Shown piece by piece: positions 9,087 through 30,302 of a stretch of 64,000 bases of DNA. Source of the DNA: Brooklawnia cerclae (lineage in GTDB: Bacteria; Actinomycetota; Actinomycetes; Propionibacteriales; Propionibacteriaceae). The number at the start of each line of letters is the position of its first letter. Positions within the stretch are counted from its first letter, which is position 1. Where the stretch lies: assembly GCF_011758645.1 (NCBI RefSeq), contig NZ_JAAMOZ010000001.1, forward strand, positions 868,001 to 932,000, read 5' to 3'. Made by a program: the position numbers and the translations under genes. A model generated the notes under the pieces. That model ran no database searches and was not told the origin of the DNA. It saw only the letters and a program-made list of their open reading frames with translations.

Positions 9087-9090
9087 AGTC

Positions 9091-10599: not shown

Positions 10600-10615
10600 G
10601 GCTGGTTCCTTCGTT

Positions 10616-10676
10616 GGGTGCGGTGCCGCCGCATGATCCCGCCATGGGAGGCGGTTGGTGCGGCGGCACCGCACCC
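10616..10676 (-). terminator. 18-bp perfect hairpin between binding-protein and ATPase genes
   Basis: GGGTGCGGTGCCGCCGCA (10616-10633) pairs exactly with 10659-10676 across a 25-nt loop. It lies between the binding-protein stop and the ATPase start on the same strand. The likely role is partial termination or 3'-end protection, so that the binding protein is made in excess, as is common in ABC importer operons. Confidence 0.75.
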
Positions 10677-10694
10677 GATTGCGTCGAGGCCGGG

Positions 10695-11792: not shown

Positions 11793-11835
11793 GCGAGTCT
11801 CTTCTTTCGGGTGTGATGTGGCGTGCTTTCCTGCA

Positions 11836-11865
11836 CGTCCCCTCGCCTTCGTTGGTGAGGGGACG
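11836..11865 (-). terminator. 9-bp hairpin between SDR and binding-protein genes
   Basis: CGTCCCCTC (11836-11844) pairs with GAGGGGACG (11857-11865). It lies in the 118-bp gap between the SDR stop and the binding-protein start. It may be a processing or stabilising hairpin rather than a full terminator. Confidence 0.5.
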
Positions 11866-11911
11866 AACGACATGGCTCACGCGGTCGCGTGCGCCGGTGA
11901 TGCGGGGGCCG

Positions 11912-12676
11912 CTAGACGACGGTGAAGCAGCCGTCGATGATGAGATCGGCGCCGGAGGTGTAGGTCGACGCGTCCGACAGCAGGTAGATGACGGCACCCG
12001 CGAGTTCCTCGGGGGCGCCCATCCGCTTGAAGGGGATCATGTCGGTCCAGATCTGGCGCCAGTCCTCACGGACGTTGCCGGTCATCTCGGTGTTGATGTA
12101 GCCAGGGCTGATCGAGTTGACCCGGATTCCCAGGGGAGCCCACTCGACGGCCAGCGACTTCGTCAGGTGTGCGACGCCCGCCTTCGAGGAGTTGTACGAC
12201 GCCTGCCCCTGCGGGATGTTGACGATCGTCGCCGACATGGACGCCGTGTTCACGATGTTGCCCTGCTTGCCGTTGGCCACCAGGTACCGCGCGAACGCCT
12301 GGGCGACGAAGAAGATGCCGTTCAGGTTGACGTCGACGACCCGGGTGAAATCGGTCGGCGTGCACTCCAACGCCGGCTTGTGCAGGCAGATCCCGGCATT
12401 GTTGAACAGCAGGTCCAGCGTCCCGAGTCGGCTCGCGGCCTCCTCGATGGTCCGGGCGACCTGCTCGGGATCCGTGACATCGCACACCAGGGCGATCGCA
12501 CGGACCTTGTGCTGCTCGGCGATCTCCGCGGCCACCTCCGTGGCATCGGCCATGTCGATGATGACGACGTCGGAGCCCTGACTGGCCAGCGCGTGAGCCA
12601 CGACCTTGCCGATTCCCTGACGCCCGCCGGTCACGATCGTGACCTTGCCGTCCAACGAGAAACGATCACTTTCCAC
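11912..12676 (-). CDS. SDR-family dehydrogenase, probably polyol dehydrogenase
   Basis: This 254-residue classical short-chain dehydrogenase/reductase has the nucleotide site TGGRQGIG at 16-23, NNAG at 92-95, and catalytic Ser146 and Tyr161-x3-Lys165. It is cytoplasmic and NAD(P)-dependent. The start is GTG at 12676, supported by GGAGG at 12686-12690 and by normal SDR length; an upstream ATG would add 24 unlikely residues. It is the first gene of the sugar-importer operon. With an FGGY kinase in the same locus it most likely oxidises an imported sugar alcohol to a ketose. The substrate is inferred, the fold is certain. Confidence 0.9.
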   Translation of the reverse strand: MESDRFSLDGKVTIVTGGRQGIGKVVAHALASQGSDVVIIDMADATEVAAEIAEQHKVRAIALVCDVTDPEQVARTIEEAASRLGTLDLLFNNAGICLHKPALECTPTDFTRVVDVNLNGIFFVAQAFARYLVANGKQGNIVNTASMSATIVNIPQGQASYNSSKAGVAHLTKSLAVEWAPLGIRVNSISPGYINTEMTGNVREDWRQIWTDMIPFKRMGAPEELAGAVIYLLSDASTYTSGADLIIDGCFTVV

Positions 12677-12756
12677 GGTTTCTGTCCTCCAAACCCTCGC
12701 ACCCTTGCGATCTCGAACCGGTCGCCTCGGTGCGGCCTCTGAGTTCAAGAAAGTGG

Positions 12757-16369: not shown

Positions 16370-17223
16370 GACATGGCGTAGTGCTGGTAGTGGTAGCAGT
16401 GGCGCTATTCCAAATTCCCGTATCGCCTGCTCGGGCGGACTGCGGTGGTTTGGGTTTCGGTAGAAGCTTAGGCGGCGCTGATGCGTGTGTGTCGGGTGAC
16501 ACGGTGACGGTGACGGCCGGAACCACCAGCGAGGTGGGCGGAGCCCCCGCCGCAAACGACACCGGCTGGACCACCCACACCGGGGATGCAACCAACACCG
16601 GATGGCAGGCCCCCACAGACCCAACCACACCCACCCGAACCACCCCCTGCAACACCACAGACCTGGCCACCGCCCCCAGAATCGGACTCTGGACCCTATG
16701 CCGACCCGCCACCACCGACCCGGAACCGGTCAACCCCGACACCCCACCCGAACAAGCCATCCCTGTGAACGCGATCGCCGCCTCAGCCGCCGCCTCCCTC
16801 CACATCCCGCCCCCCACCATCCACATCGGCCCCAACCCCGCCAACAACCAATGGAACGCCCTCGCCGTCGGCCTACCCATCTGGCTGTGGACAACAGACC
16901 CCCGCCACGTCAACGAGCAGGTATCGCGAGAAGGCATCAACATCACACTGTCAGCCACGAGCAGCCAGGTAAGCTTCGACATGGGCGACGGCTCCGTGGT
17001 CACCTGCCAGTCGATGACACCCCGACCACCCCGCACCGATCCGATGACACGGTCACCAGACTGCGGACACGTCTACAAACAACCAGGCATCTACCAGATC
17101 CGGGCATCCGCCAACTGGCAAGTGGCATGGCAGGCATTGGGGTACTCGGGCCAAGAACAGGTGACATCATCTGGCGGTTACCGGCTGGACATGCGAGAGT
17201 TCTCCACCGTGGTGGTCGGCTGA
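16354..17223 (+). CDS. Secreted PKD-like protein
   Basis: This 289-residue protein has a Sec signal peptide (about 1-27, ending SPARA). A low-complexity Thr/Pro-rich region follows, then a C-terminal PKD-like beta-sandwich: the SFDMGDGSVVTC core and the CGHVYKQPGIYQIRASANW strand are typical, and the two cysteines probably form a disulfide. PKD domains are usually structural or adhesive modules outside the cell. ATG 16354 lies inside the lipoprotein gene, with AGAGGGA upstream. The 16560-16900 part is strikingly C-rich (runs of ACC, CCC and CAC codons), unlike neighbouring genes. The function beyond surface location is unknown. Confidence 0.75.
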   Translation: MPIRVRHGVVLVVVAVALFQIPVSPARADCGGLGFGRSLGGADACVSGDTVTVTAGTTSEVGGAPAANDTGWTTHTGDATNTGWQAPTDPTTPTRTTPCNTTDLATAPRIGLWTLCRPATTDPEPVNPDTPPEQAIPVNAIAASAAASLHIPPPTIHIGPNPANNQWNALAVGLPIWLWTTDPRHVNEQVSREGINITLSATSSQVSFDMGDGSVVTCQSMTPRPPRTDPMTRSPDCGHVYKQPGIYQIRASANWQVAWQALGYSGQEQVTSSGGYRLDMREFSTVVVG

Positions 17224-17253
17224 CGAAAACCGGGATCCCCGTTCCGTCCCCAG

Positions 17254-17276
17254 CGGCGTGTCGCAACGACACGCCG
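17254..17276. terminator. Bidirectional hairpin between convergent genes
   Basis: CGGCGTGTCG (17254-17263) and CGACACGCCG (17267-17276) form a perfect 10-bp stem with a 3-nt loop. It lies between the PKD-like gene and the convergent S9 peptidase gene and could serve both. Confidence 0.7.
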
Positions 17277-17342
17277 ACACCCGCCACAACGACATCCCAA
17301 TTCTCGTCAATCAACTCACGCCGTCGCGTCGACGGCCCGGTC

Positions 17343-19325
17343 TCAGCGCCCCGGCAGGTTGTCACCCGGCAGGTTGTCGATCGGTAGCCGCGGTATGTCG
17401 TCGGCGGGCGTGAACCCGAACAGCTGCGACAGGAAGCTGAGCTGCGCCTCCAGCGTCCGGCTGCGGGCCGCTGCGGTGTGGAAACCGTGGCCCTCGCCCT
17501 CGAACATGACCAATGCAACGGGCAGACCCCGGCGCCTGGCCGCGTCCGCCATGGCCGATGCCTGATCGGGCGGGACGACCGGGTCGTCGGTGCCCTGCAG
17601 GAGCAGGATCGGGCTCGCCAGCTTGTCGAGATTGTTGATGGGGGAGCGGTCGCGATAGACGCGTTCGTCCTCGGGCCACGGCCCCACCAGGGAGTCCATG
17701 TAGTGCGACTCGAACTTGTGCCCGCCGACAAGGGCTTTGAGATCGGCGATGCCGTAGCGGCTGATCGCGGCGGCGAACCGGTCGCTGGTCGTCACCGCAC
17801 GCAACGCCGTGTACCCACCGGCGCTTCCGCCGACGATGACGACGCGTCCCGGATCGGCCAGCCCCGCGTCGACAGCGGCCTCGGTGGCGTCGATGCAGTC
17901 GTCGACGTCGGCCACGCCCCACATTCCACGCAGCCGGTCGCGCCACGCGCGCCCGAACCCGGCCGAGCCGGAGTAGTTGACGTCCAGTACCGCGAAGCCG
18001 CGTGAGGTCCAGAACTGGTAGGTCGGGTAGTAGGCGTTGGTGGCGATGGCCGTCGGCCCGCCGTGCACCTGGACGAGCAGGGGTGGCCTTGTGGCGCGCG
18101 GCGCGGCGAAGCGTGCGTTGGTCGGCGGGTAGTACCAGGCCTGGACGGGGCCGTGGCGCCCGGTGAACATGAGCGAACGGGCCACCGATGTGACGTCGCG
18201 ATCGGGCAGTCCCGCAAGGGTGCGGAGGGTGTCCAACGTGCCGTCCGGGCAGACCCGGACCAAGGCACGCGGCCCGACCGGCCGATCGACCAGTGCATAT
18301 CCCTCGCCGAGCGCGACGCACACCGAGTCCACCGACGACACGCCGGCCATGCGCCGCGTGGGCTCACCCCGCGTCGAGACCACGGCCAGATGGCACAGCC
18401 CCTCCGAGAAGTACCACGTGAGGACACGCGCTTCGTCGAGGGCTGCGAAGGCATGGTTGCCGAGGGTGAACATCGGCAGGTCGAAGTCGTGCGCGTCGGA
18501 GTGCAGGGGCCGCACCGGATCGTCCCGGTCGTCGCGCCACGAGTGGAGCCGGAAGAAGCCGTCGGGGTCGGCTGTGAAGAGCAGGCTGCCGTCCGGGGCC
18601 CATCGTGGATGATGGGCAGCAGCCCCGTCGGGGCCGAAGCCTCGTCGTCCGGCAATCTGGACGGCGTCCCTGATGGCGAGGCCGCCGCCACGGTGCAGTC
18701 GTCCTACATGGAGCGTCGCGCAATCCCAGGGCATCGCGGGGTGATCCCACTGGAGCCATGCCAGCCGGAGTCCGGGCCCGAGCTCCGGATTGGCGTAGAA
18801 GGATGCACCACGGCGCAGCACATGTTCGGCGACGGGGCGATCGTCTCCGGCGGGCCATTCCAGGGCGACGATCGTGGTCTCGGGCTCACCCGGCCCTCGA
18901 TGATCCTCACGGACCGCCAGCACGACGGGGACGCCCGGGTACACACGCACGTCGCCGTACCTGACCAGGGGATCCCCGTCCGTCAGAGTGCACACGGTCC
19001 CGTTGGGCGCCCTCAGCTTGATCGTGCGATCCGACTCGTCGCAATAGACGATGACTCCACCGGACGCGTGGAACGCGCCCCCGCCGTATTCGTTGACGCG
19101 GCTGCGCACGTTCGCGTGCCGCGGTGTCAGTTCGTTCACCACTCCGTTGTGAAGCCGCATGATGGCCTGACGCCCGTCCTGGTCGGGCCTGGACTCCAGC
19201 CACAGGAGGTCGGCTTCGTCCGCTTGCAGGGACGACATCTGGCCGCCTCCCGCGATGACGTCGTCGATACCGATGGGAGACGCCCAGCTGCCGTGGGGTG
19301 CGACGACCGGTTCGGGGTGGTCCAT
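17343..19325 (-). CDS. S9-family prolyl oligopeptidase-like peptidase
   Basis: This 660-residue cytoplasmic serine peptidase has an N-terminal beta-propeller-like region and a C-terminal alpha/beta-hydrolase domain. The nucleophile is in GGSAGGY (Ser501), the acid in QGTDDPVVP (about 580), and the histidine in EGEGHGF (about 613), so the triad is complete. The family cleaves short peptides after proline or hydrophobic residues. ATG 19325 is used, but the ribosome site is weak, so a few residues' uncertainty remains. The last residues (IDNLPGDNLPGR) come from a short direct repeat. It is monocistronic, upstream of the LacI gene on the same strand with a 28-bp gap. Confidence 0.92.
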   Translation of the reverse strand: MDHPEPVVAPHGSWASPIGIDDVIAGGGQMSSLQADEADLLWLESRPDQDGRQAIMRLHNGVVNELTPRHANVRSRVNEYGGGAFHASGGVIVYCDESDRTIKLRAPNGTVCTLTDGDPLVRYGDVRVYPGVPVVLAVREDHRGPGEPETTIVALEWPAGDDRPVAEHVLRRGASFYANPELGPGLRLAWLQWDHPAMPWDCATLHVGRLHRGGGLAIRDAVQIAGRRGFGPDGAAAHHPRWAPDGSLLFTADPDGFFRLHSWRDDRDDPVRPLHSDAHDFDLPMFTLGNHAFAALDEARVLTWYFSEGLCHLAVVSTRGEPTRRMAGVSSVDSVCVALGEGYALVDRPVGPRALVRVCPDGTLDTLRTLAGLPDRDVTSVARSLMFTGRHGPVQAWYYPPTNARFAAPRATRPPLLVQVHGGPTAIATNAYYPTYQFWTSRGFAVLDVNYSGSAGFGRAWRDRLRGMWGVADVDDCIDATEAAVDAGLADPGRVVIVGGSAGGYTALRAVTTSDRFAAAISRYGIADLKALVGGHKFESHYMDSLVGPWPEDERVYRDRSPINNLDKLASPILLLQGTDDPVVPPDQASAMADAARRRGLPVALVMFEGEGHGFHTAAARSRTLEAQLSFLSQLFGFTPADDIPRLPIDNLPGDNLPGR

Positions 19326-19353
19326 GAGACTCAAGCTATCGCAACGACTGGGA

Positions 19354-20301
19354 TCAGGGCTGCCAGACCATGGGCACCGGGAGCCTGTCGCGCGTCGGCG
19401 GCGTCCCGGGCGAGGCGATCCTCTCGACGAGCAGGTCGGCCGCCGCTCGTCCCAACGCGACGCCGTCGACATCGATCGCGGGGACGTCCTTGAGGCCGAG
19501 CGCGTCGACGATAACCTGCTCGGAACTGACCAGGGGAGCGGGCTGCCCGGCCGAGAGGTAGGCGTGCTGGATGCCGAGTCCGATCGCCGTCGCGTAGGGG
19601 ATGACCGCGGTCGGGGCGAACCTGCGCACCTCCGCGGCGGCCCACACCCCCGCCGCGAACGTCGCCGGGTAGGGTCCCACGACGGCCAGTTCGGCACCCG
19701 TGGACTCGGTGGCGGCGCGCACGGTGCTGGCCCGTTGCTTGTCCTGCCACGACCCCGCCGGCCCCCCCACGTAGACGATCCGCCGATGCCCGGCCTCGAT
19801 CAGCCGGCGGGCGAGGCCACCGAAGGCCGATGCCGTGTCGGCGATCACCGAGGCCATGCCGTCGATCTCGCGGTCGACGAGCACTGCCGGGGTGCCCTCG
19901 GTGGCGGTGACGACCAGCTCGTCGGTTCCTGCGGGAGCGACCACGATGAACCCGTCGACCTGGCGCGCCAGCCTGCCGAACGCGGTGAGTTCGTCACTGG
20001 CGGCCAGCGGATGCACGACCACGGTGAGCTGCAGCCCCGCCTCGGAGGTGCGCGCCTGGGCGCCGGCGATCACCGGGGTGAAGAAGCTGTTGTCGAGTGT
20101 GGGGACGACCAGGGCGACGATGCCCGTCCTGCCACCCGCGAGGAGCCGTGCCGCGGCGTTGGCGACGAAACCCAGGCGCTCGGCGGCGTCCTTGACCCGC
20201 TGCGCCGTGGCGGGGGAGACCAGTTCGGGACGGGTGAAGGTGCGCGATGCTGTCGCCTTGGAGACGCCGGCGAGCGCGGCCACATCCGCGATCGTCGCCA
20301 T
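19354..20301 (-). CDS. LacI-family transcriptional repressor
   Basis: This 315-residue LacI-type regulator has an N-terminal helix-turn-helix (ATIADVAALAGVSKATASRT, residues 2-21) and hinge, followed by a periplasmic-binding-like effector domain. The start ATG 20301 follows a strong GAGGAGG site. It diverges from the importer/deaminase operon at 20426. Between them is a LacI-type dyad, TGAAACCGGTTACA, at 20390-20403, and a weaker GTTT-N5-AAAC dyad at 20344-20356. It most likely represses the importer operon and itself until a ligand (probably the imported compound or a product) binds. Confidence 0.93.
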   Translation of the reverse strand: MATIADVAALAGVSKATASRTFTRPELVSPATAQRVKDAAERLGFVANAAARLLAGGRTGIVALVVPTLDNSFFTPVIAGAQARTSEAGLQLTVVVHPLAASDELTAFGRLARQVDGFIVVAPAGTDELVVTATEGTPAVLVDREIDGMASVIADTASAFGGLARRLIEAGHRRIVYVGGPAGSWQDKQRASTVRAATESTGAELAVVGPYPATFAAGVWAAAEVRRFAPTAVIPYATAIGLGIQHAYLSAGQPAPLVSSEQVIVDALGLKDVPAIDVDGVALGRAAADLLVERIASPGTPPTRDRLPVPMVWQP

Positions 20302-20343
20302 GGTCCTCCTCACGGACTCGGTTTCCGGCGAGCGTAACACGAC

Positions 20344-20356
20344 GTTTACATGAAAC
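20344..20356. promoter_or_regulatory. Weaker dyad, possible second LacI operator
   Basis: GTTTACATGAAAC has matching GTTT/AAAC outer arms around a non-symmetric centre. It lies 43 bp upstream of the repressor start and would suit repressor autoregulation. Confidence 0.35.
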
Positions 20357-20389
20357 CCTGGCGCCGGAACCACGCTTCACCGTAGGTTA

Positions 20390-20403
20390 TGAAACCGGTT
20401 ACA
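20390..20403. promoter_or_regulatory. LacI-type operator
   Basis: TGAAACCGGTTACA is a near-perfect dyad (12 of 14 positions) with the central AACCGGTT typical of LacI-family operators. It ends 22 bp before the TTG start of the first permease gene and sits in the intergenic region shared with the divergent LacI gene, so it is well placed to block transcription of the importer operon. Confidence 0.75.
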
Positions 20404-20425
20404 TTTTCGACGGCTTGGAGTCACT

Positions 20426-21250
20426 TTGCATTCACGCATCGCGCCCTTGCTTCTTCTGGCACCCGGACTGGGTTTCCTGCTCGTCGGCTTCCTCGTACCC
20501 TCGGTCGCCATGCTCTTCTCCCCGCCGGGTACATCGACCGGTGAGGTCTTCGTACGGCTCGGGCAGATGCTGACCGATCCCTACGACCTGCAGATCATCG
20601 GCCGCACGTTGATGTTCGGGCTCGTCGTGACCGTGATCTGCGTCGTCCTCGGCTTCCCGGTCGCCTATCTGCTGGCCCGCACCTCGTCGCGCTGGTCGGG
20701 GCTGCTCCTCGCGCTGGCGATCTTCCCGCTGCTGCTCAGCAACGTCGTCCGGACCTTCGGGTGGCTCGTGGTGCTCGGCTCCAACGGCGCCATCGGGCAG
20801 CTGCTGGTGGGCCTCGGCCTGGTCGACCAGGCTCCCCAGCTGCTCTACACCCCGCTTGCCGTCGTCCTCGGTCTGACGCAGCTGTTCCTGCCGCTGTCGA
20901 TCATCACGTGCTACTCGGCGGTCTCCCAGGTGGACGCGGGGCTCGACGACGCGGCCCGGGGCCTGGGAGCCTCGCGCACCCGGACGTTCTGGGACGTGGT
21001 GCTTCCGCTGTCGCTGCCGGGGATCATCGTGGCGGCGACGCTCGTCTTCGCCGGATCAGTCACCGCATACACCACGCCCTATCTGCTGGGCGGATCGAGC
21101 AACCGCATGCTGTCGACCCAGCTGTTCGCGTATTCGAGCGTCACGGTCGACTGGGCGAGCGCGTCGGCCACCGCGATCATCATGACGGTGCTGGTGTTCG
21201 CCGTCTCGGCGCTGTCGAGCCTGGCAGGCCGGAAGGGGGCGACGGCGTGA
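20426..21250 (+). CDS. PotB-like ABC transporter permease
   Basis: This 274-residue inner-membrane permease has about six hydrophobic segments and the binding-protein-dependent permease loop (DDAARGLGASRTRTF), where EAA-type residues contact the ATPase. It is closest in style to PotB/PotC of polyamine importers. The start is TTG at 20426, supported by GGAG five bases upstream. Its stop overlaps the GTG start of the second permease. It is the first gene of an operon that ends with an adenosine-deaminase-family gene, so the cargo may not be a polyamine. Confidence 0.9.
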   Translation: MHSRIAPLLLLAPGLGFLLVGFLVPSVAMLFSPPGTSTGEVFVRLGQMLTDPYDLQIIGRTLMFGLVVTVICVVLGFPVAYLLARTSSRWSGLLLALAIFPLLLSNVVRTFGWLVVLGSNGAIGQLLVGLGLVDQAPQLLYTPLAVVLGLTQLFLPLSIITCYSAVSQVDAGLDDAARGLGASRTRTFWDVVLPLSLPGIIVAATLVFAGSVTAYTTPYLLGGSSNRMLSTQLFAYSSVTVDWASASATAIIMTVLVFAVSALSSLAGRKGATA

Positions 21251-22044
21251 GGACACGGCATCCCGTCGCCGCCGCCTTCGCCGTGGCGGGCTACATCGTC
21301 ATGATCGTGCCGATCCTCTTCGTCGTCGCCACGGCGTTCACCGCGGGCAAGACCCTGAAGTTCCCGCCCGAGGGCTTCTCCCTCCGTTGGTTCGGGCAGG
21401 CCCTGTCGTACCAGCCTTTCGTCGGCTCGCTCGCCACGAGCGCCGAGATCGCGGTTCTCGCGACCCTGCTCGCTCTCCTGGTCGGCGTACCGGCCACGCT
21501 GGCCATCCATCGCGGCCGGCTACCGGGCAAGGGCATCGTCGAGGCGCTCTTCCTCTCGCCGCTCGTGGTCCCCGAGCTCGTGGTCGGCCTCGCGCTGTTC
21601 CAGCAGCTGATCGTCACCTTCCGGTTCGACAACTGGCCGGTTCTGCTCATCGGGCACACGGCATTGCTGCTTCCCTACGCGGTGCGCGTCACCGGCGCGT
21701 CCCTGGCGGGGATGGATCCGGCGCTCGAGGAGGCCGCTCGTGGTCTCGGCGCGTCACCCCTGGTCGCGTTCTGGACCGTCACACTGCCCGTGCTGCGCCC
21801 CGGGATCTTCTCGGCCGCACTGCTGAGCTTCATCACGTCGTTCAACAACGTGCCGCTGTCGCTGCTGTTGCAGAGCCGTACCACCCGAACCCTGCCCGTC
21901 ACGATGCTCGATTACGTACAGCAGAGCTACGACCCCATGGTCGCCGCGGCCTCGACCCTGATCCTCGCGGTCACCGTCGTCATCGCCGTCATCGCCGAGC
22001 GCACAGTCGGCTTCACCAGGATCTTCGGAGGCATCAACCGATGA
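21247..22044 (+). CDS. PotC-like ABC transporter permease
   Basis: This 265-residue second permease has six predicted membrane segments and the loop EEAARGLGASPLVAF that docks to the ATPase. The GTG start at 21247 overlaps the stop of the first permease (GTGA), and its own stop overlaps the ATPase start (ATGA), so all three are translationally coupled. It would pair with the first permease to form the channel. Confidence 0.9.
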   Translation: MRTRHPVAAAFAVAGYIVMIVPILFVVATAFTAGKTLKFPPEGFSLRWFGQALSYQPFVGSLATSAEIAVLATLLALLVGVPATLAIHRGRLPGKGIVEALFLSPLVVPELVVGLALFQQLIVTFRFDNWPVLLIGHTALLLPYAVRVTGASLAGMDPALEEAARGLGASPLVAFWTVTLPVLRPGIFSAALLSFITSFNNVPLSLLLQSRTTRTLPVTMLDYVQQSYDPMVAAASTLILAVTVVIAVIAERTVGFTRIFGGINR

Positions 22045-23036
22045 GCGTCGCAGCACAGTTCGACAAGGTCACGCAGGTCTTCGGCACGTTCACGGCAGTC
22101 GACGGCATCGATCTGGCCATCCAGGCCGGCAGGCTCACGACCCTGCTCGGTCCCTCGGGCTGCGGGAAGACGACCTCGCTCCGCATGCTGGCCGGCTACC
22201 TGCGTCCCACCTCGGGCCGCATCATGATCGACGGCACGGACGCGACGTCCGCCCCACCCGAGAAGCGCGGCCTCGGCATGGTCTTCCAGTCCTACGCGCT
22301 CTTCCCCCACATGACCGTCGCGGACAACGTCGGGTACGGCCTCAAGCTGCGGCGCGTCCCCCGGGACGAACGGGCGGCGCGTGTGGCCGAGTGCCTCGAT
22401 CTCGTCGGTCTCGGCGACGTGGCTGCCCGCAAGCCGAAGGCGCTCTCCGGCGGCCAGCAGCAGCGCGTCGCTCTCGCCCGCGCCATCGCGATCCGCCCCA
22501 AGCTGCTCCTCCTCGACGAGCCGCTGTCCAACCTCGACGCGCGCCTGCGCGTGCAGATGCGCTCGGAGATCCGCAGGATCCAGTCCGAGACGGGGCTGAC
22601 CGTCGTGCTCGTCACCCACGATCAGGACGAAGCCCTGGAGATGAGCGACGAGATGGTGCTCATGCGATCCGGGCGGATCATGCAGCACGGTGCGCCCGCC
22701 GAGGTCTTCAGTGCGCCCGTCAATCGTTTCGTGGCCGACTTCCTCGGCTACGAGAACTTCTGGCACACGCGCGACGGTCTGGTCACCGTCCGCCCCGAGC
22801 ATCTGAATGTGTCCACCACCGCGCCGGCGGGCGACGGCGGGCTCGCGCTCGACGCGGTCGTCTCCGAGATCGTCTATCGCGGTGTCGACATGCTCGTCAC
22901 CCTCGTCGCACACGACGACCAGGGTGAGACGAAGCTCGTCTCCAGCGTCCGCGCCGACGGCTCCGTCCAGTTCTCCCCCGGCGATCGTGTGGCTGTGACG
23001 GCACCAGCCGCCCGCCTGATCGCACTGACCGACTGA
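22041..23036 (+). CDS. PotA-like ABC transporter ATPase
   Basis: This 331-residue ATPase of the PotA/FbpC/MalK type has Walker [10 protein letters not shown] near 36-44, Q-loop FQSYALFPH, signature LSGGQQQR, Walker B LLLLDEP and the switch histidine in [10 protein letters not shown]-terminal TOBE-like regulatory region follows (about 245-331; VRPEHLNVS). ATG 22041 has GGAGG at 22027-22031. It powers the two preceding permeases. Confidence 0.93.
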
Positions 23037-23058
23037 CTCCACCACGAAAGGAATCCAT

Positions 23059-24132
23059 ATGCACCGCACGACCCGCGCCCTCGCACTGGGGGTCGCGTCC
23101 GCTTTCCTGGGCGTCGCGGCTCTCACCGGTTGTTCCGGCTCGGACGACGAGCAGGAGGGCACCCAGACGCTCGTCGTCAGCACCTTCTCCTTCGGCGTCG
23201 AGGCCTTCCAGGAGGCTGTGATCGACCCGTTCACCGCTGAGACCGGCATCCAGGTCGAGGTCGAGACCGGTTCGAACTCCGATCGGCTCTCGCAGCTTCA
23301 GCTCGCCGCCGGAGACAACCCGGGCATCGACATCATGCTCATCAGCGACTACTACGCGGCACTGGGCCAGGAGGACGACCTGTTCGCCGAGGTCGACCAG
23401 AGCGCCATCCCCAACCTCTCCGAGATCGCCGACTTCGCCGTCGACGACGCGTACAACGGCCCCGCCTACAGCTACCAGCTCAACGGCACGCTCTACCGCA
23501 CCGACGAACTGAGCCAGGAGCAGGCAGCCAGCTGGGACCTGTACGGGGACGCCGCCTACTCCGGCAGGCTCGCGCTGCCCGACATCTCGGTGACGGCCGG
23601 CCAGCTCGCGATCAGCGGGGTGGCGGCGACGTATGGCAGCGGGCCGTACGACGTCGACACGGCCTTCGCGAAGATGGGCGACTGGGCCCCCGGCATCCTG
23701 CAGTTCTACAGCTCGTCGACGGAGGTGACCAACCTCATCACGCAGGGCGAGATCGTCGCGGCGGACTCGCTCAACGGCTTCGCCACCGACCTGGTGGCCT
23801 CCGGCGAGCCCATCGCCTGGACCCCGCCGTCCGAGGGCGCCTACATGGCAACCAACCGGGTGATGATCCCCAAGGGCGCGGCCAACGTGGACGCGGCCAA
23901 CACGTTCATCAACTACCTGCTGGGCGTCGAGGCACAGTCCAAGTCCGCCGAACTCGTCGGTGACCTGCCTGTGAACCCGGGAGCCACCATCCCCGATGAG
24001 CTGACCGACGTCGTCGGCGACATCGCGACCGACCCGATCGCGGCGGGATACCAGGCGCTTGATCCCACGGAGCTCGTCCCGACGCGCAGCGAGTGGGTCG
24101 ACCGCTTCGCCCGCGAAGTGACCGGGAAGTGA
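23059..24132 (+). CDS. PotD-like solute-binding lipoprotein
   Basis: This 357-residue extracellular solute-binding protein has a signal peptide and lipobox LTGC (Cys25). The mature part has the PotD/family-1 arrangement, including the DIMLISDYYAALGQ strand and the PAYSYQLNGTLYRTDEL region at the domain boundary. AAAGGAAT precedes ATG 23059. The typical acidic polyamine-binding residues cannot be confirmed by eye. Because the next gene is an adenosine-deaminase-family enzyme overlapping its stop, the ligand may be a purine nucleoside or related amino-heterocycle. That is inference from coupling only. Confidence 0.9.
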   Translation: MHRTTRALALGVASAFLGVAALTGCSGSDDEQEGTQTLVVSTFSFGVEAFQEAVIDPFTAETGIQVEVETGSNSDRLSQLQLAAGDNPGIDIMLISDYYAALGQEDDLFAEVDQSAIPNLSEIADFAVDDAYNGPAYSYQLNGTLYRTDELSQEQAASWDLYGDAAYSGRLALPDISVTAGQLAISGVAATYGSGPYDVDTAFAKMGDWAPGILQFYSSSTEVTNLITQGEIVAADSLNGFATDLVASGEPIAWTPPSEGAYMATNRVMIPKGAANVDAANTFINYLLGVEAQSKSAELVGDLPVNPGATIPDELTDVVGDIATDPIAAGYQALDPTELVPTRSEWVDRFAREVTGK

Positions 24133-25235
24133 CCGGGGTCCCCGCCGGCTGGATCGAGCGACTGCCCAAGGTCGACCTGCACTGTCATCTCATCGGCACC
24201 GTGCGAGCGAGTACCTTCGCCGAACTGGCGCGCCGCGAGCGGCTCGATCTGCCCGACACCCCGGAACAGATCTACGCCGACATCAACTCGCTGCCCCCGG
24301 ATCCGGACCTGTACCGCGACACCGTCATCCCGGTGCCGCAGGGACGCTCCGCCGACGAGCCCGAGGTGTCGTACTCGCTGTTCCAGGTGTCGAAGTGGGT
24401 CACCAGCGTCCTGCGTGACGCCGACGACCTGACACGCATCGTCCACGAGGCGTTCGAGGACGCCCACCGCTGCAATGTGCGGCACCTCGAACTCTTCTTC
24501 GACGACGTACCCGAGCACCTCGCGGGGCTCGGGTACGAGGGCAGCGTCGCGGCCTACGCCGAGGGCATCCGGATGGCCGAGCGTGACTTCGGCATGACGG
24601 GGCGGATGATCAAGGGCATCGATCGATCGAAGAGCGGCGGGGAGGCCCTGGAGCACGTGCGGGAGATGGTCGCGCACCCGCACGAGTATGTCGCGGGTAT
24701 CGGGCTGGACAACCTCGAGACGGCCGGTCCGCCCGAGCGCTTCGCCGATGCCTACCGCCTGGCGGGGCAAGCAGGCCTGCGCCGCACCGCCCACGCCTCC
24801 GAGCATGCCCCCACGGCGGTCAACACCGTCACCTGCCTCGACGTGCTCGGCTGCGATCGCATCGACCACGGTTACTACGTGTTGCAGGATCCGCGGGTGG
24901 TGGCGCGGGTGCGCGACGAGTCGGTCACGTTCACCGTCGCGTCCACCACCTCGCGGCGCTCGTGGCGTCCGTGGCGACGGGCCTCGATCCGGGCCATGCT
25001 CGACGCGGGGATCGGCGTGATCCCCTGCTCGGACGACCCCGGCATGTTCCCGACCACCCTGACCAGCGAGTACGCGATCCTCGCCGGACAGGTGGGCGCC
25101 ACGCACGACCAGTTGACGGCGATGGCGCTGCGCGCCGCCGATGCCTGCTGGTTGCCCGACGACGCCCGGGCCGACCTGAGGAGCCGCGTGCAGGCCGAGG
25201 TCACGGCGCTCGACGCCGAGTTCGGCCTCGCGTAG
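24129..25235 (+). CDS. Adenosine deaminase-family metal hydrolase, divergent
   Basis: This 368-residue amidohydrolase of the adenosine/AMP deaminase family has the first metal-ligand pair HCH (His18, His20) and HASE (His222, Glu225) in place of the usual HAGE. It also has RIDHG (His247) and SDDP (Asp302/303) in place of TDDP. All predicted zinc ligands and the catalytic Glu and His are therefore kept, with variation around them. The usual CPTSN-type substrate loop is replaced by VASTTSRRSW, so the substrate may not be plain adenosine. The GTG start overlaps the binding-protein stop (GTGA). It likely deaminates the compound brought in by the preceding importer. Confidence 0.85.
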   Translation: MTGVPAGWIERLPKVDLHCHLIGTVRASTFAELARRERLDLPDTPEQIYADINSLPPDPDLYRDTVIPVPQGRSADEPEVSYSLFQVSKWVTSVLRDADDLTRIVHEAFEDAHRCNVRHLELFFDDVPEHLAGLGYEGSVAAYAEGIRMAERDFGMTGRMIKGIDRSKSGGEALEHVREMVAHPHEYVAGIGLDNLETAGPPERFADAYRLAGQAGLRRTAHASEHAPTAVNTVTCLDVLGCDRIDHGYYVLQDPRVVARVRDESVTFTVASTTSRRSWRPWRRASIRAMLDAGIGVIPCSDDPGMFPTTLTSEYAILAGQVGATHDQLTAMALRAADACWLPDDARADLRSRVQAEVTALDAEFGLA

Positions 25236-25240
25236 AAAGA

Positions 25241-25278
25241 CCCCGTGGAGCCCTCCTTCCACCGAGGGCCCCACGGGG
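25241..25278. terminator. Hairpin terminator between convergent genes
   Basis: CCCCGTGGAGCCCT (25241-25254) pairs with AGGGCCCCACGGGG (25265-25278), with one mismatch and a 10-nt loop. It lies between the deaminase gene and the convergent GntP-type permease gene. Confidence 0.75.
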
Positions 25279-25329
25279 CTCCAGCTTTCCGTTCCGATCT
25301 CTCCGACCCCGGCATGTGCCGGGTTCGTC

Positions 25330-26712
25330 CTACACGATCAGACCCAGGACGATCACCAGCGGCAGGGAGAAGACCGATGCGCTCGCCGTGGCCACCGTCA
25401 GGGTCTTCAGCGCTCCCTGGGTGGAAAGGCCGAGCAGCGACTGGAACATCCAGAAGAAGTTGCTGTTGACCTGGACGGCGAACATCGAGCCCGATCCGAC
25501 GGCCAGCCCGACGACGACGGGGTCGATCCCCAGGGAACCGACGAACGGTGCCAGGATTCCCGCGGCCGCGATGGCGGCCACCGACACCGAGCCGATGGCG
25601 AAGTGCATCAATGCTGCGATGAACCAGGCGAAGACGAGGGTCAGGACGACCGAGCCGGCCGCGCCGCCGCTGGTGAACAGCGAGCCCAGCGTCTCGTCCA
25701 GGGTCGTCGCCTCGATGATCGCGCCCAGCGAGCCGCCGATGCCGGTGATCAGCAGGATCTGCCCGGTGGTGTTCAGCCCGCGCTCCACGGCCTTGTCGGT
25801 GCGTTCGCGTCCGATGGTGAACCGGGCCAGCAGGTAGGCGCCCAGTAGACCGATGAACAGCGCGAGGTTCGCGAACGACTTGTCGGCCATGGTCGCGACC
25901 AGGGCGTTGCGTCCTTCCTCGGGCACGATGGCCCCGGCGATGGCTCCGGCGGCGATCAGGGCGAGCGGGATCAGGATCGGCAGCAGCGACACCCACAGGG
26001 CGGGCAGCTTCGGCGCGTGGTCCCCGGCCAGTTCCCCGTCCAGTTCCTCCTGGGCTCGCAGCGCCTCGTTCACGTCCTCGTCGGTCTCCGGCTTCCACCA
26101 GCCGCTCACGCCCCGCAGGAAGATCAGCTTGTACAGCAGCGGGACGACGATGGAGGTCAGCGGCCCGATCAACAGGCCGAGCAGCAGGTAGCGTCCCAGC
26201 GACAGGTCGAGCTGCCCGGAGATCACCAGGGTTCCCAGCCCGGGGACGACGAACACGTACCCGCTGAAGATGCCGACGCCCAGCGCGGCCGACAGCAGCG
26301 GGAGCCCCTTGGGACCGACCTTCCGCGCCGCCCCGCGGGCCAGGGGAGAGGCCAGCACGACCTGCACGTCGACGTAGATGGACGAGAACAGGGTGGTGAG
26401 CGCGCCGCTGAGGGCGTACGGGATTCGGTTCGGACCGAACCAGCGCAGCAGCACTTCCACGAGCCTCTGCAACGCGCCCAGCGCGTACAACAGGGCGCCC
26501 AGCAGGACGCCGAAGCCGATCAGCAGGCCGACCGACTGCATGATGTCGCCGAATCCGACGATGAGTGCCTCGATGGTTCCCTGCACCCCGACGCCCCCGG
26601 CGATGCCGAGGTAGAAAGACCCGATGACCAGGGCTATCACCGGGTCCCACTTGCGCCAGATGATGAGGACCAGGACGATGCCGATCGCGATGACGGCATG
26701 GACAGCGATCAC
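25330..26712 (-). CDS. GntP-family organic acid/gluconate permease
   Basis: This 460-residue integral membrane protein has about 12-14 hydrophobic segments and the look of the GntP family (gluconate, hydroxy acids and related anions). A conserved SSIYVDVQVVLASPLARG loop is near the first third. The start is GTG at 26712, chosen over an upstream ATG because AAAGGAG sits 6 bases before it and the next residues begin a membrane helix. It lies downstream of a CitA/CitB-type sensor pair, which probably induces it in response to its substrate. Whether that is gluconate, citrate or another carboxylate is open. Confidence 0.85.
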   Translation of the reverse strand: MIAVHAVIAIGIVLVLIIWRKWDPVIALVIGSFYLGIAGGVGVQGTIEALIVGFGDIMQSVGLLIGFGVLLGALLYALGALQRLVEVLLRWFGPNRIPYALSGALTTLFSSIYVDVQVVLASPLARGAARKVGPKGLPLLSAALGVGIFSGYVFVVPGLGTLVISGQLDLSLGRYLLLGLLIGPLTSIVVPLLYKLIFLRGVSGWWKPETDEDVNEALRAQEELDGELAGDHAPKLPALWVSLLPILIPLALIAAGAIAGAIVPEEGRNALVATMADKSFANLALFIGLLGAYLLARFTIGRERTDKAVERGLNTTGQILLITGIGGSLGAIIEATTLDETLGSLFTSGGAAGSVVLTLVFAWFIAALMHFAIGSVSVAAIAAAGILAPFVGSLGIDPVVVGLAVGSGSMFAVQVNSNFFWMFQSLLGLSTQGALKTLTVATASASVFSLPLVIVLGLIV

Positions 26713-26737
26713 GGTTGCTCCTTTGCACGAATGATCC

Positions 26738-26753
26738 GCTGCAGACCTGCAGC
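26738..26753. promoter_or_regulatory. Perfect inverted repeat upstream of the GntP gene
   Basis: GCTGCAG-AC-CTGCAGC lies 26-41 bases before the GTG start of the permease gene. It could be a binding site for the adjacent response regulator or a leader hairpin. No -10/-35 pair is obvious in the 26713-26909 gap. Confidence 0.4.
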
Positions 26754-26909
26754 AATCCCACACGTGCTTTCGTAGTTCCCGCGATCACGTGGTCGCCACT
26801 TGCGTAGATAGTGGTCAGTTTGTGTTCGTATTGGTCGCTCGCGCCATGCCCGCCGCTCGTCGCCGTGGACGCGGCGGGTGCTGGATGCCGGTTCGAACGC
26901 GGCCGGTGG

Positions 26910-27584
26910 TTACCCGCGCGGCCTGTACACGAGTTCGGGCCGCCCCGTCCGTCCGTAGACCGGAACTCGCTCGCATCCACCGGTCTCCGACAGGTACTCC
27001 AGATATCGGCGGGCCGTGACACGCGAGATGCCGACTGCTTCGGCGGCCCTGGTCTCCGTGAGGCCGTCTGGCTCCGCCAGCAGAGCCTCACGGACGGCGG
27101 CCAGGGTCTCCTTCGACATCCCCTTTGCGATGGCGGTGCCCGACGGGTCGCGGAGCGCCGCCAGGGCGGAGTCGATCTCGCCCTGATCGAGCACATCGCG
27201 CTGGCCGGCCGCGGCCTGCGTGAACCGGGCGTAGTTGACCAGCTTGGCCTGAAGGGTGGCGAACGAGAACGGTTTCAGTACGTAATGCAGCGCTCCGCCG
27301 CGCATGGCCGCGCGCACCGTGTGCAGGTCGCGGGAGGCGGTGAGCACCATCACGTCCGGCCCGTCGGGCATCGCCTGTAGCGCGCGAGCGACCTCCAGCC
27401 CACTCATCCCGGGCATCGCCAGGTCGAGAAGCACCAGGTCGACGCCACCTGCGGCACAGCGCTCCACCGCTTGCGGGCCGTTGTAGGCCACAGCGACGAC
27501 CTCGAACCCGGGGACACGCTCCACGAGTGTGCGATGCCCCTCGGCGACTGTTCGCTGGTCGTCCACCACGAGAACCCTGATCAT
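26910..27584 (-). CDS. CitB/DcuR-type response regulator
   Basis: This 224-residue regulator has an N-terminal receiver domain with acidic pocket DD (residues 8-9), phosphoacceptor Asp in LLDLAMPG (about 54) and conserved Lys in VLKPFSF (about 104). A C-terminal helix-turn-helix follows (ETRAAEAVGISRVTARRYLEYL). This is the CitB/DpiA/DcuR class, which activates carboxylate transport genes. Its ATG overlaps the stop of the sensor kinase gene (ATGA). The GntP-type permease gene follows 197 bp downstream and is the natural target. Confidence 0.92.
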   Translation of the reverse strand: MIRVLVVDDQRTVAEGHRTLVERVPGFEVVAVAYNGPQAVERCAAGGVDLVLLDLAMPGMSGLEVARALQAMPDGPDVMVLTASRDLHTVRAAMRGGALHYVLKPFSFATLQAKLVNYARFTQAAAGQRDVLDQGEIDSALAALRDPSGTAIAKGMSKETLAAVREALLAEPDGLTETRAAEAVGISRVTARRYLEYLSETGGCERVPVYGRTGRPELVYRPRG

Positions 27585-29281
27585 GGCCCCACCTCGTCAT
27601 TCGATTCTGGCACCGGCAGCCGCACCGCGAACCTGGAAGGCGACGTGGTGACCTCGATGGTGCCGTGCAACCGGCGAACGGTGCCCGCAACCAGGGAAAG
27701 CCCGATGCCATGTCCCTGCGGCCGGAGGTCGGGGTCGGTGACAGATTTCGTGGTCCACCCACGCCGGAACGCGTCCCCGATCAGGTCGCCGGGGATACCG
27801 GGACCGGAGTCGGTGACCTCCATCACGACGGTCTCCTCCTGCCCCGATCGCTCCAGGCGTCCACCGACCTCGACCCAGCCCCGCTCTGTGGACGCGGCGG
27901 CATCCAGCGCGTTGTCGACCAGATTGCCGAGGACGAGCACGAGATCGGTGGAGGCCAACCCGGTCTCCGGGATGTCGATGCCGTCCGCGAGCCGCAACTC
28001 CACCCCGCGTTCCTCGGCCTGCGCCGACTTGCCCAGCAGCAGCGCGGCGACTGGGGCGTCCCGAACGGCCTCGGTGACCCGGTCGATGAGAGCTTGGCTA
28101 CGCTCGATGGCCGCCGTGGCGAACTCGACGGCCTCCTCGCCGCGGCCCAGCTCGACCAGCAGTATGACGGTGTGCAGCCGGTTGTCGGCCTCGTGCGCCC
28201 TACTGCGCAGCATCTCGCTGAACGACCGCAGGGAGTCCAGCTCGCCGGTGAGCCGCACCAGGTCTGTGCGATCCTGCAGGGTGGTCACCCAGCCCAGGTC
28301 GCGCCCGTCCAGTACGGCTCTGGTCTGTGTGACGATCAGTGCCCGACCACCGGCGGTGAAGTGTGTCTCGCCCGCGCAGACGCGTCCTGAGGCCATCAGG
28401 TCGCTCAGCCCCTGCCCGATGCCCAACTGGGCGACAGGGGTTCCCAGCACCGCCCCGGACGCGTCCAGCAGCTCGCGGGCCTCGTCGTTGCACAGGACGA
28501 CCGCTCCGTCGTGCCCGACCAGCACCAGGCCGGCGCGCACCGAGTGCAGCAGCGCCTCGTGGTACGAGTACAGGCGGCCGAGCCCGATCGAGCCGAGCCC
28601 CAGGGTCTGACGGCGCAGCCGGCGGGCGACCACCCAGCTGCCCACCGTGCCGAGTGCCAGGGAGGCGACCGTGATGGCCACCACCTGGACCGATCGCTCC
28701 ATGCCTGCCTGGCGCACCGATTCGGTGGGGATGCCCGCGGCGACCATCGCGATCACCCGGCCGTCCGAACGCACCGGGTGCACCACACGGAACGAGGGCC
28801 CCATGGTGCCCTGGGTCTCTTCGACGACCTCGCCGCCGGCCTGTGCCGCGGCGATCGAGCCCACGTACTGCCTGCCCACCTGCTCGGGGTTCGGGTGGGT
28901 CCACCGAGTGCCGTCGACGTCCATCACGACGACGAAGGACAGGTCGTTCGCGGCCCGGATTCGCTCGATCGGCTCCCCGAGGGCTTCGGCGGGATCCTCG
29001 CTCTGGACGGCCTGGATCACCCACGGCGATTCGGCCAGGGTCGTGGCGGTGGAGGTGACGTGGGCGATCGCCTCGGCCCGGGCGGCCTCCTCGGCGGCAC
29101 GCACGGACAGCAGCCAGACCGGAACCACCACGACGACCAGCATCAACGCCATCAGGACGAAGATCTGGGCCGACAGGCTCCAGCGGTCGGTCGAACTCGA
29201 CCACAGCGGGACGCGTCCACGGTAGGGGACTCCGGGGCGTGCCGCGTGGGGATCGATCGATGCGACGGGCTTCCTTGCCAC
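27581..29281 (-). CDS. CitA/DcuS-type sensor histidine kinase
   Basis: This 566-residue membrane kinase has a membrane segment at about 36-60, an extracellular sensor domain of the Cache/PAS-like CitA type (about 62-200), a second membrane segment (about 205-225) and a cytoplasmic PAS domain (about 245-340). A SpoOB-type dimerisation helix with the phospho-acceptor histidine in RSRAHEADNRLHT follows, then a HATPase domain (NLVDNALDAA, DSGPGIP, GHGIGLSLV). The class senses citrate, fumarate or similar carboxylates outside the cell. The GTG start at 29281 has only a weak ribosome site. It is transcribed first in the sensor-regulator pair. Confidence 0.9.
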   Translation of the reverse strand: MARKPVASIDPHAARPGVPYRGRVPLWSSSTDRWSLSAQIFVLMALMLVVVVVPVWLLSVRAAEEAARAEAIAHVTSTATTLAESPWVIQAVQSEDPAEALGEPIERIRAANDLSFVVVMDVDGTRWTHPNPEQVGRQYVGSIAAAQAGGEVVEETQGTMGPSFRVVHPVRSDGRVIAMVAAGIPTESVRQAGMERSVQVVAITVASLALGTVGSWVVARRLRRQTLGLGSIGLGRLYSYHEALLHSVRAGLVLVGHDGAVVLCNDEARELLDASGAVLGTPVAQLGIGQGLSDLMASGRVCAGETHFTAGGRALIVTQTRAVLDGRDLGWVTTLQDRTDLVRLTGELDSLRSFSEMLRSRAHEADNRLHTVILLVELGRGEEAVEFATAAIERSQALIDRVTEAVRDAPVAALLLGKSAQAEERGVELRLADGIDIPETGLASTDLVLVLGNLVDNALDAAASTERGWVEVGGRLERSGQEETVVMEVTDSGPGIPGDLIGDAFRRGWTTKSVTDPDLRPQGHGIGLSLVAGTVRRLHGTIEVTTSPSRFAVRLPVPESNDEVGP

Positions 29282-29995: not shown

Positions 29996-30302
29996 TCGTT
30001 TCGACAGGCTCAACGAGCGGTCCTTGAGCTTGTCGAAAGGACTACGGCAGGCTTCAGTGGTCGTTTCGACGGACGGTCCTTGAGCTTGTCGAAAGGACTA
30101 CGACAGGCTCAACGGTCGTTTCGACAGGCTCAACGGTCGTTTCGACAGGCTCAACGGTCGTTTCGACAGGCTCAACGGTCGTTTCGACAGGCTCAACGGT
30201 CGTTTCGACAGGCTCAACGGTCGTTTCGACGGGCTCAACGGTCGTTTCGACGGGCTCAACGGTCGTTTCGACAACGGTCCTTGAGCTTGTCGAAAGGACT
30301 GC
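29996..30302. repeat. REP-like array with seven 21-bp tandem units
   Basis: A gene-free stretch between the DUF3145 gene and fabF is filled with the TTCGACAGGCTCAA family. From 30116 to 30262 there are seven exact-length 21-bp tandem units with core CGTTTCGACAGGCTCAACGG; the last two carry a single A-to-G change. A truncated eighth follows. Inverted partners (CCTTGAGCTTGTCGAAAGGAC) flank the array at about 30020-30045, 30075-30100 and 30277-30300. The array can fold into large hairpins and probably ends both convergent transcripts. There are no unique spacers, so it is not a CRISPR. Confidence 0.92.

What the first reader, a model, noticed from the sequence alone, without database searches (positions are those of the whole stretch)
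20390..25235. PotABCD-like importer translationally coupled to a divergent adenosine deaminase-family enzyme
A LacI repressor, a clear LacI operator, two permeases, ATPase, binding protein and an amidohydrolase form one locus in which each junction from first permease to ATPase, and from binding protein to deaminase, overlaps. The enzyme keeps all expected metal ligands (HCH, HASE, DHG, SDD) but has a serine in HAGE and lacks the CPTSN-type substrate loop. PotABCD importers normally carry polyamines; ending in a deaminase suggests instead a nucleoside, modified purine or another amino compound deaminated on entry. I do not know a described system with this composition.
Basis: partly seen in the sequence, partly recalled or inferred. 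Interest (0 to 1): 0.72.

Follow-up and report, generated by a model that had tools for sequence, protein, structure and literature searches.

The report
Purine importer with built-in deaminase
A compact set of six bacterial genes, labelled by similarity as a polyamine importer, more probably brings an adenine-like purine into the cell and strips off its amino group; it is real and widely conserved, but its exact substrate has not been measured.

Summary
LacI repressor, operator, two permeases, ATPase, binding protein and adenosine-deaminase-family enzyme form one module with 4-base overlaps at three junctions. Order and strands are the same in 64 of 68 close loci; three of the other four are cut by contig ends, one (L038) is a gapped scaffold and unresolved. 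No other gene recurred in more than 7 of 69 flanks.

The polyamine label fails: the binding protein has lost PotD's acidic and aromatic contacts. The main clue is the transporter's relatives. A sister module keeps LacI-permeases-ATPase-binding protein but ends in a nucleoside hydrolase plus an adenine-deaminase homologue; in a tree, window module, sister and other such importers form one clade apart from other importers of this type.

Best explanation: an adenine/adenosine-type purine importer in which one divergent PF00962 deaminase replaced the hydrolase-plus-deaminase pair. The enzyme's motifs resemble adenine more than adenosine deaminases, and 48 of 48 genomes searched with the module hold another adenosine-deaminase-type gene, so adenine or a substituted adenine is likelier than adenosine. 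The substrate is inferred, not measured. New variant of a known kind; nine paper searches found no description.

The parts
19354..20301 (-). LacI-family repressor, divergent
   Evidence: Pfam LacI + Peripla_BP; nearest NCBIfam models GntR 97.4 and UriR 93.6 bits, far below cut-offs 400 and 550; adjacent in 64 of 68 loci
20389..20404 (.). near-palindromic LacI-type operator ATGAAACCGGTTACAT
   Evidence: only exact match in own genome; AACCGGTT core in 64 of 64 testable gaps
20426..21250 (+). permease 1 (PotB/PotH-like), TTG start
21247..22044 (+). permease 2 (PotC/PotI-like), 4-nt overlap
22041..23036 (+). ATPase (PhnT2/PotA-like, TOBE_2), 4-nt overlap
23059..24132 (+). lipoprotein-type solute-binding protein (SBP_bac_8); N266 and D302 align with PotD D257 and Y293
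   Evidence: lipoprotein read by eye from LTGCSG
24129..25235 (+). divergent PF00962 deaminase (GLDNLE, HASE, DHG, SDD, STTSRRSWRPWRR), 4-nt overlap
25247..25282 (.). inverted repeat GGAGCCC...GGGCTCC after the last stop, possible transcript end
   Evidence: seen by eye; the terminator scan of 20250-25400 found nothing

Best explanation
A LacI-controlled purine scavenging module. Shown: gene order, overlaps, operator, family membership, conservation. Inferred: the repressor leaves the operator when a purine (or its product) accumulates; the lipoprotein binds an adenine/adenosine-type purine outside, two permeases and the ATPase pump it in, and the cytoplasmic metal-dependent deaminase replaces the 6-amino group by oxygen, giving ammonia (or an amine) and a hypoxanthine-type product for salvage or nitrogen supply. 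The deaminase took the place held in sister operons by a nucleoside hydrolase plus an adenine-deaminase homologue. Within this reading a free base (adenine or N6-substituted adenine) is likelier (about 60:40) than the nucleoside adenosine. The first two rivals below are sub-readings of this one.
For: (1) Sister modules: of 9 of 394 class genomes with the binding protein (E<=1e-40), 4 (own included) have the close deaminase; the other 5 carry LacI-permease-permease-ATPase-SBP (SBP 42-47%, permeases 55-61% identity) followed by a nucleoside hydrolase (L116: RihC model 218.7 bits, cut-off 382) and a TIGR01178 adenine-deaminase homologue (L114 410.6, L116 386.3 bits, cut-off 472.5). (2) Plasmid records of Loktanella, Palleronia, S. 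meliloti pSymB and Deinococcus show importer + nucleoside hydrolase + adenine deaminase(-domain) protein; two near-identical A. vitis loci have the deaminase-domain protein, Qingshengfaniella the hydrolase. (3) Transporter tree of SBP+2 permeases, 34 taxa (window, 8 of 68 close loci, 2 of 3 own-family loci, 5 sisters, 18 plasmid loci picked from hit lists, not at random): the 10 loci without purine genes are split from all the rest with support 100; hydrolase and/or adenine-deaminase genes in 13 of 13 non-ADA loci on the purine side, 0 of 10 on the other. (4) PotD contacts W34, D168, E171, W229, W255, D257, Y293 (list recalled; letters agree with E. coli PotD) read gap, I, T, L, A, N, D in the window; Asn at 257 and Asp at 293 in 48 of 48 purine-side SBPs compared (35 ADA-type of 68 held, 5, 8), mixed in 10 others. 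(5) Catalytic His/Glu/Asp kept in 69 of 69; GLDxxE as in PA0148 (adenine deaminase, recalled), not DLAGDE as in E. coli Add; I/L/T (61/7/1) where Add has Asp after HxHL. (6) A further, full-length TIGR01430 match of 201 bits or more in 48 of 48 searched genomes with the module (43 over cut-off) and one of 269.9 bits in the own genome, so adenosine deamination is probably covered elsewhere.
Against: No ligand or activity was measured. The purine link rests on homologous operons at 42-47% (sister) or 29-33% (other purine-side loci) SBP identity; specificity can shift at that distance. The window locus has no hydrolase or adenine deaminase beside it; its genome holds a nucleoside hydrolase elsewhere (256.8 bits) and no AdeC (only a 61-position match of 21.1 bits). 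Both sister enzymes score below their equivalog cut-offs. The window enzyme groups neither with PA0148 nor with Add. Absence of AdeC in module genomes (47 of 48) is uninformative, as only 15 of 394 class genomes have a match. Eleven other actinomycete AdeC loci show no SBP or permease relative beside them, three on contigs under 10 kb. L132, on the purine side, has only an unannotated adenine-deaminase homologue on the other strand. The two A. vitis loci are not independent. L038 is unresolved.
Confidence: 0.74

Rival explanations
1. Sub-reading: importer and deaminase for N6-substituted adenines (cytokinins, N6-methyladenine); the deaminase releases an alkylamine rather than ammonia.
For: A cytokinin deaminase, Patl2390 of cog1816, uses N6-methyl- and N6,N6-dimethyladenine but not adenine or adenosine (passages of PMC13296781). 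The window enzyme has Ser for Gly in HAGE, a mostly hydrophobic residue at the Asp position after HxHL and an all but invariant STTSRRSWRPWRR loop. Many hosts are soil or plant-associated genera (names; ecology recalled).
Against: Patl2390's sequence was not obtained, so no relation was tested; sister operons use hydrolase plus adenine-deaminase homologues, which fit plain adenosine.
Confidence: 0.2
2. Sub-reading: adenosine importer with a true adenosine deaminase (nucleoside substrate).
For: Sister operons contain a nucleoside hydrolase, so the ancestral importer probably carried a nucleoside. Best model is TIGR01430 at 209.8 bits, close to the 216.55 cut-off.
Against: Below cut-off; Asp after HxHL replaced by Ile; GLDxxE instead of DLAGDE; another TIGR01430-type gene in 48 of 48 genomes searched, 43 over cut-off.
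Confidence: 0.28
3. Ordinary polyamine (putrescine/spermidine) importer with a deaminase parked beside it.
For: Top NCBIfam models are PotB, PotC and PotD for permeases and SBP; the ATPase's are PhnT2, then PotA, the latter at 334.4 of 355.6 bits.
Against: All below cut-offs (SBP 54.3 of 582); PotD acidic and aromatic contacts lost; deaminase present in 64 of 68 close loci with the rest cut off or unresolved; purine enzymes beside the relatives.
Confidence: 0.04
4. Importer for an unrelated amino compound (pterin, modified pyrimidine, guanidino compound) deaminated by a repurposed enzyme.
For: The enzyme groups with PDB 4gxw and plasmid-borne relatives, for none of which a substrate was found in my searches.
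Against: Purine enzymes beside 13 of 13 non-ADA loci on the purine side of the transporter tree.
Confidence: 0.07

Closest known systems
PotABCD / polyamine-opine-phosphonate type ABC importers (class name recalled)
   Same: same architecture: two BPD_transp_1 permeases, TOBE_2 ATPase, SBP_bac_8 binding protein
   Different: PotD ligand contacts absent; conserved deaminase partner; LacI control
Importer + nucleoside hydrolase + adenine deaminase operons (e.g. S. meliloti pSymB, Loktanella; found here, no description found in searches)
   Same: same side of the transporter tree, same Asn/Asp pair, LacI gene next to the importer in the actinomycete sisters, Loktanella and Palleronia
   Different: one PF00962 deaminase in place of two enzymes of other families
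Adenine deaminase PA0148 (taken as PDB 3ou8/3pan; identity and activity recalled)
   Same: PF00962, metal and catalytic residues, GLDxxE motif
   Different: 100.8 bits only, HASE for HAGE, arginine/tryptophan loop, separate group in the tree, importer partner
Adenosine deaminase Add (TIGR01430)
   Same: Pfam family and catalytic residues
   Different: below equivalog cut-off; Asp after HxHL and DLAGDE missing
Cytokinin deaminase Patl2390 (cog1816; passages of PMC13296781)
   Same: a deaminase of cog1816 acting on substituted adenines; the window enzyme is of the same Pfam family as Add, also cog1816
   Different: sequence not available here; relation untested
PDB 4gxw, deposited as adenosine deaminase (Burkholderia, recalled)
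   Same: best solved relative (175.6 bits); shares LHCHL.G..R and DHGY
   Different: keeps HAGE, other loop; its close Burkholderia relative L104 is 35.7% identical to the window. Three annotated relatives sit beside an MFS transporter, beside another ABC binding protein, and beside no transporter; two records were unannotated

Membership tests
Polyamine importer (PotABCD function) | PotD acidic/aromatic ligand contacts (D168, E171, W229, W255, D257, Y293) | tested here: not met
   I, T, L, A, N, D in the window (contact list recalled)
PotABCD-type ABC importer (architecture) | two BPD_transp_1 permeases + ABC_tran/TOBE_2 ATPase + SBP_bac_8 | tested here: met
Purine-linked group of these importers | transporter phylogeny | tested here: met
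   split from 10 loci without purine genes with support 100
Purine-linked group of these importers | nucleoside hydrolase and/or adenine deaminase beside the importer | tested here: not met
   PF00962 deaminase instead; tblastn of both enzymes hit none of L003-L070
Purine-linked group of these importers | binds a purine | not testable with these tools
   needs ligand binding
Adenosine deaminase (TIGR01430 equivalog) | score over curated cut-off | tested here: not met
   209.8 vs 216.55 bits
Adenosine deaminase (TIGR01430 equivalog) | metal/catalytic residues HxH, H, E, H, D | tested here: met
Adenosine deaminase (TIGR01430 equivalog) | ribose-side Asp after HxHL and DLAGDE | tested here: not met
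   Ile22 and GLDNLE (ribose role recalled)
Adenine deaminase, PA0148 type | GLDxxE motif | tested here: met
Adenine deaminase, PA0148 type | same clade | tested here: not met
   groups with 4gxw and L102-L106, unrooted tree
Cytokinin deaminase (Patl2390) | sequence relation and activity on N6-substituted adenines | not testable with these tools
   primary paper not held

The most novel reading that the evidence does not exclude
A cross-phylum group of ABC importers now called spermidine/putrescine or left nameless (Actinomycetota, Alphaproteobacteria, Deinococcota) is in fact a family of adenosine/adenine importers, recognised by an Asn/Asp pair at the PotD D257/Y293 positions and by interchangeable cytoplasmic deamination cartridges; in actinomycetes a deaminase class for which I found no characterised member replaced the hydrolase-plus-deaminase pair and moved with, and between, transporter lineages.
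Probability: 0.55. Interest if true: 0.65.

Novelty: new variant of a known kind. Interest (0 to 1): 0.55.

Why it matters
If true, a set of automatic 'polyamine transporter' labels in soil bacteria should read purine importer, and a deaminase class without a characterised member that I could find gets a testable substrate range. The sister operon on S. meliloti pSymB offers a genetically easy place to test the transporter, and the replacement of two enzymes by one within one operon type would be a clean case of non-orthologous swapping.

Tried and rejected
Polyamine importer: rejected on PotD contacts. AdeC absence in module genomes as evidence for adenine deamination: looked good (match in 1 of 48), dropped once the base rate was known (15 of 394). 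Reverse test: of the places outside the sister genomes, the 11 that match the model nearly end to end were fetched (partial hits in G328, G368, G478 and G525 left out); 0 of 11 have an SBP or permease relative beside them; 6 of 11 have ATPase-only hits of 32-40%, taken as other ABC systems; three contigs are under 10 kb. Regulon by operator search: one exact site only; the three 2-mismatch places were not examined. Flanking genes as a clue: beyond groups whose coordinates lie on the module itself (read as frame shadows), none in more than 7 of 69 loci (flanks up to 8 kb). Rfam: 0 matches in 17000-28000. Promoter/terminator scan of 20250-25400: 0 found. Papers: searches gave no description of this system (locus tags in one search were recalled guesses); passages seen of PMC13296781, PMC4958253 and PMC9038784; PMC4961836 and PMC5929573 searched without a hit; all others seen only in listings.
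Full report
What is there. Six genes at 19354-25235 form a divergent LacI gene and a five-gene operon: permease, permease, ATPase, binding protein, PF00962 deaminase. Three junctions overlap by 4 nt; the ATPase-to-binding-protein junction is a 22-bp gap. A 16-bp near-palindrome between the divergent genes (20389-20404) is the only exact match to its pattern in the 3.79-Mb own genome, with three further places at 2 mismatches.

Is it more than chance. A scan of one genome per species (84,980 by the tool's description) with six exact peptide patterns gave 70 loci: 68 close (57-83% identity) and two Rhodococcus loci at 31%. All six genes lie in the same order and strand in 64 of the 68; L003, L054 and L065 are cut by contig ends and L038 is a gapped scaffold in which the permeases were not found. 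The scan favours close relatives and its count is a lower bound. Nearly all hosts are named actinomycetes; one is a Sporosarcina record (L067), possibly contaminated. An in-frame start codon overlapping the upstream stop by 4 nt exists at the permease-permease junction in 65 of 65 testable loci, permease-ATPase in 62 of 65, binding protein-deaminase in only 20 of 67. The AACCGGTT core occurs in 64 of 64 testable LacI-permease gaps. No other gene recurs in more than 7 of 69 flanks.

Distribution. In 394 class genomes the deaminase (E<=1e-60) occurs in 4 and the binding protein (E<=1e-40) in 9; the four with SBP identity of 58% or more, own genome included, are exactly the four with the deaminase. 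In the own family 4 of 197 genomes have a close copy (E<=1e-139): the own genome and three of one other genus; none of the 7 other own-genus genomes listed does, though four of them have weak matches at 23-26% identity. FastTree trees put the window's permeases+ATPase, deaminase and LacI inside Microbacterium groups (support 0.992; 0.992 with one Nesterenkonia MAG; 0.991); the SBP tree agrees weakly (0.633).

What the transporter carries. By NCBIfam the permeases are nearest PotB and PotC, the SBP nearest PotD, the ATPase nearest PhnT2 and then PotA; all are below cut-off, the PotA model only narrowly (334.4 of 355.6 bits). Aligned with E. coli PotD, the polyamine contacts (list recalled) are gone (two own-family SBPs in the alignment, L119 and L120, were not counted). 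The five other SBP-positive class genomes carry a sister module with nucleoside hydrolase and adenine-deaminase homologues directly after the binding protein (in L117 a transposase-like gene, judged by eye, splits permease and ATPase). Annotated plasmid relatives repeat this. Of 18 plasmid loci taken from the hit lists (8; chosen by rank and by spread, not at random), 8 fall on the purine side of the tree and 10 on the other; that split has support 100. tblastn finds hydrolase and/or adenine-deaminase genes in 13 of 13 non-ADA loci on the purine side and 0 of 10 on the other. With the 10 as outgroup the deaminase-type modules sit inside the hydrolase/adenine-deaminase modules, next to the actinomycete sisters, so the swap looks derived. 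L119 and L120 (own family, other genus) branch before the other deaminase-type transporters in the combined tree (support 93) and, with L121, at the base of the deaminase-type group in both permease trees, while in the SBP tree two others come before them; yet their deaminase nests among the others (0.949; 80.8% to a Promicromonospora). This points to exchange of the deaminase between transporter lineages.

What the enzyme does. Catalytic residues are invariant in 69 sequences. In an unrooted tree it groups with PDB 4gxw and plasmid-borne relatives L102-L106, apart from the PA0148-containing group and from E. coli Add. It shares GLDxxE with PA0148 and lacks Add's Asp after HxHL and DLAGDE, which, from recalled ADA structures, argues against a ribose-bearing substrate. 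In each of 48 searched genomes with the module there is another, full-length TIGR01430 match of 201 bits or more, over cut-off in 43 (50 of the 68 loci were given, two genomes were not held). The own genome has one at 269.9 bits, a nucleoside hydrolase elsewhere and no AdeC. On the other side, the sister operons' nucleoside hydrolase argues that the ancestral cargo was a nucleoside. I therefore hold an adenine/adenosine-type purine at 0.74 overall, free base over nucleoside about 60:40, and N6-substituted adenine as a serious sub-reading.

Limits. No structure could be predicted, no activity is known, and the paper library lacks most subscription papers, including the cytokinin deaminase paper. 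'Not described' means not found in searches.

Noticed in passing
window 30018-30273: Array of a 21-bp unit CGACAGGCTCAACGGTCGTTT (8.2 copies, 98% matches) overlapping a 56-bp repeat; inside a spurious-looking ORF.
   Followed up: partly
L067 (Sporosarcina beigongshangi scaffold, Bacillota name): Carries the module at 85.8% DNA identity over 6.1 kb to Arthrobacter L056; a contaminated assembly or a transfer.
   Followed up: partly
L154, L157, L161: In another actinomycete family (f19) an adenine-deaminase homologue sits next to a PF00962 deaminase relative (27-28% to the window's) without an SBP or permease relative.
   Followed up: no
Plasmids CP152066.1, CP076091.1, CP075014.1 (Salmonella enterica): Plasmid-borne deaminase 32.3% identical to the window's; context not examined.
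   Followed up: no
window 25330-26763 (-) and 26910-29281 (-): Downstream: a gluconate/citrate-type permease, then response regulator and sensor kinase, all judged by eye; not part of the module.
   Followed up: no
window 8124-11873 (-): A separate sugar-type ABC importer (binding protein, ATPase, permease) with an SDR gene beside it (11912-12748), judged by eye from translations.
   Followed up: no
L114 4058-4951 (-): Arginase-family gene after the adenine-deaminase homologue; not noticed in the other three sister loci whose ORFs I listed (L115-L117); L118 not listed.
   Followed up: no
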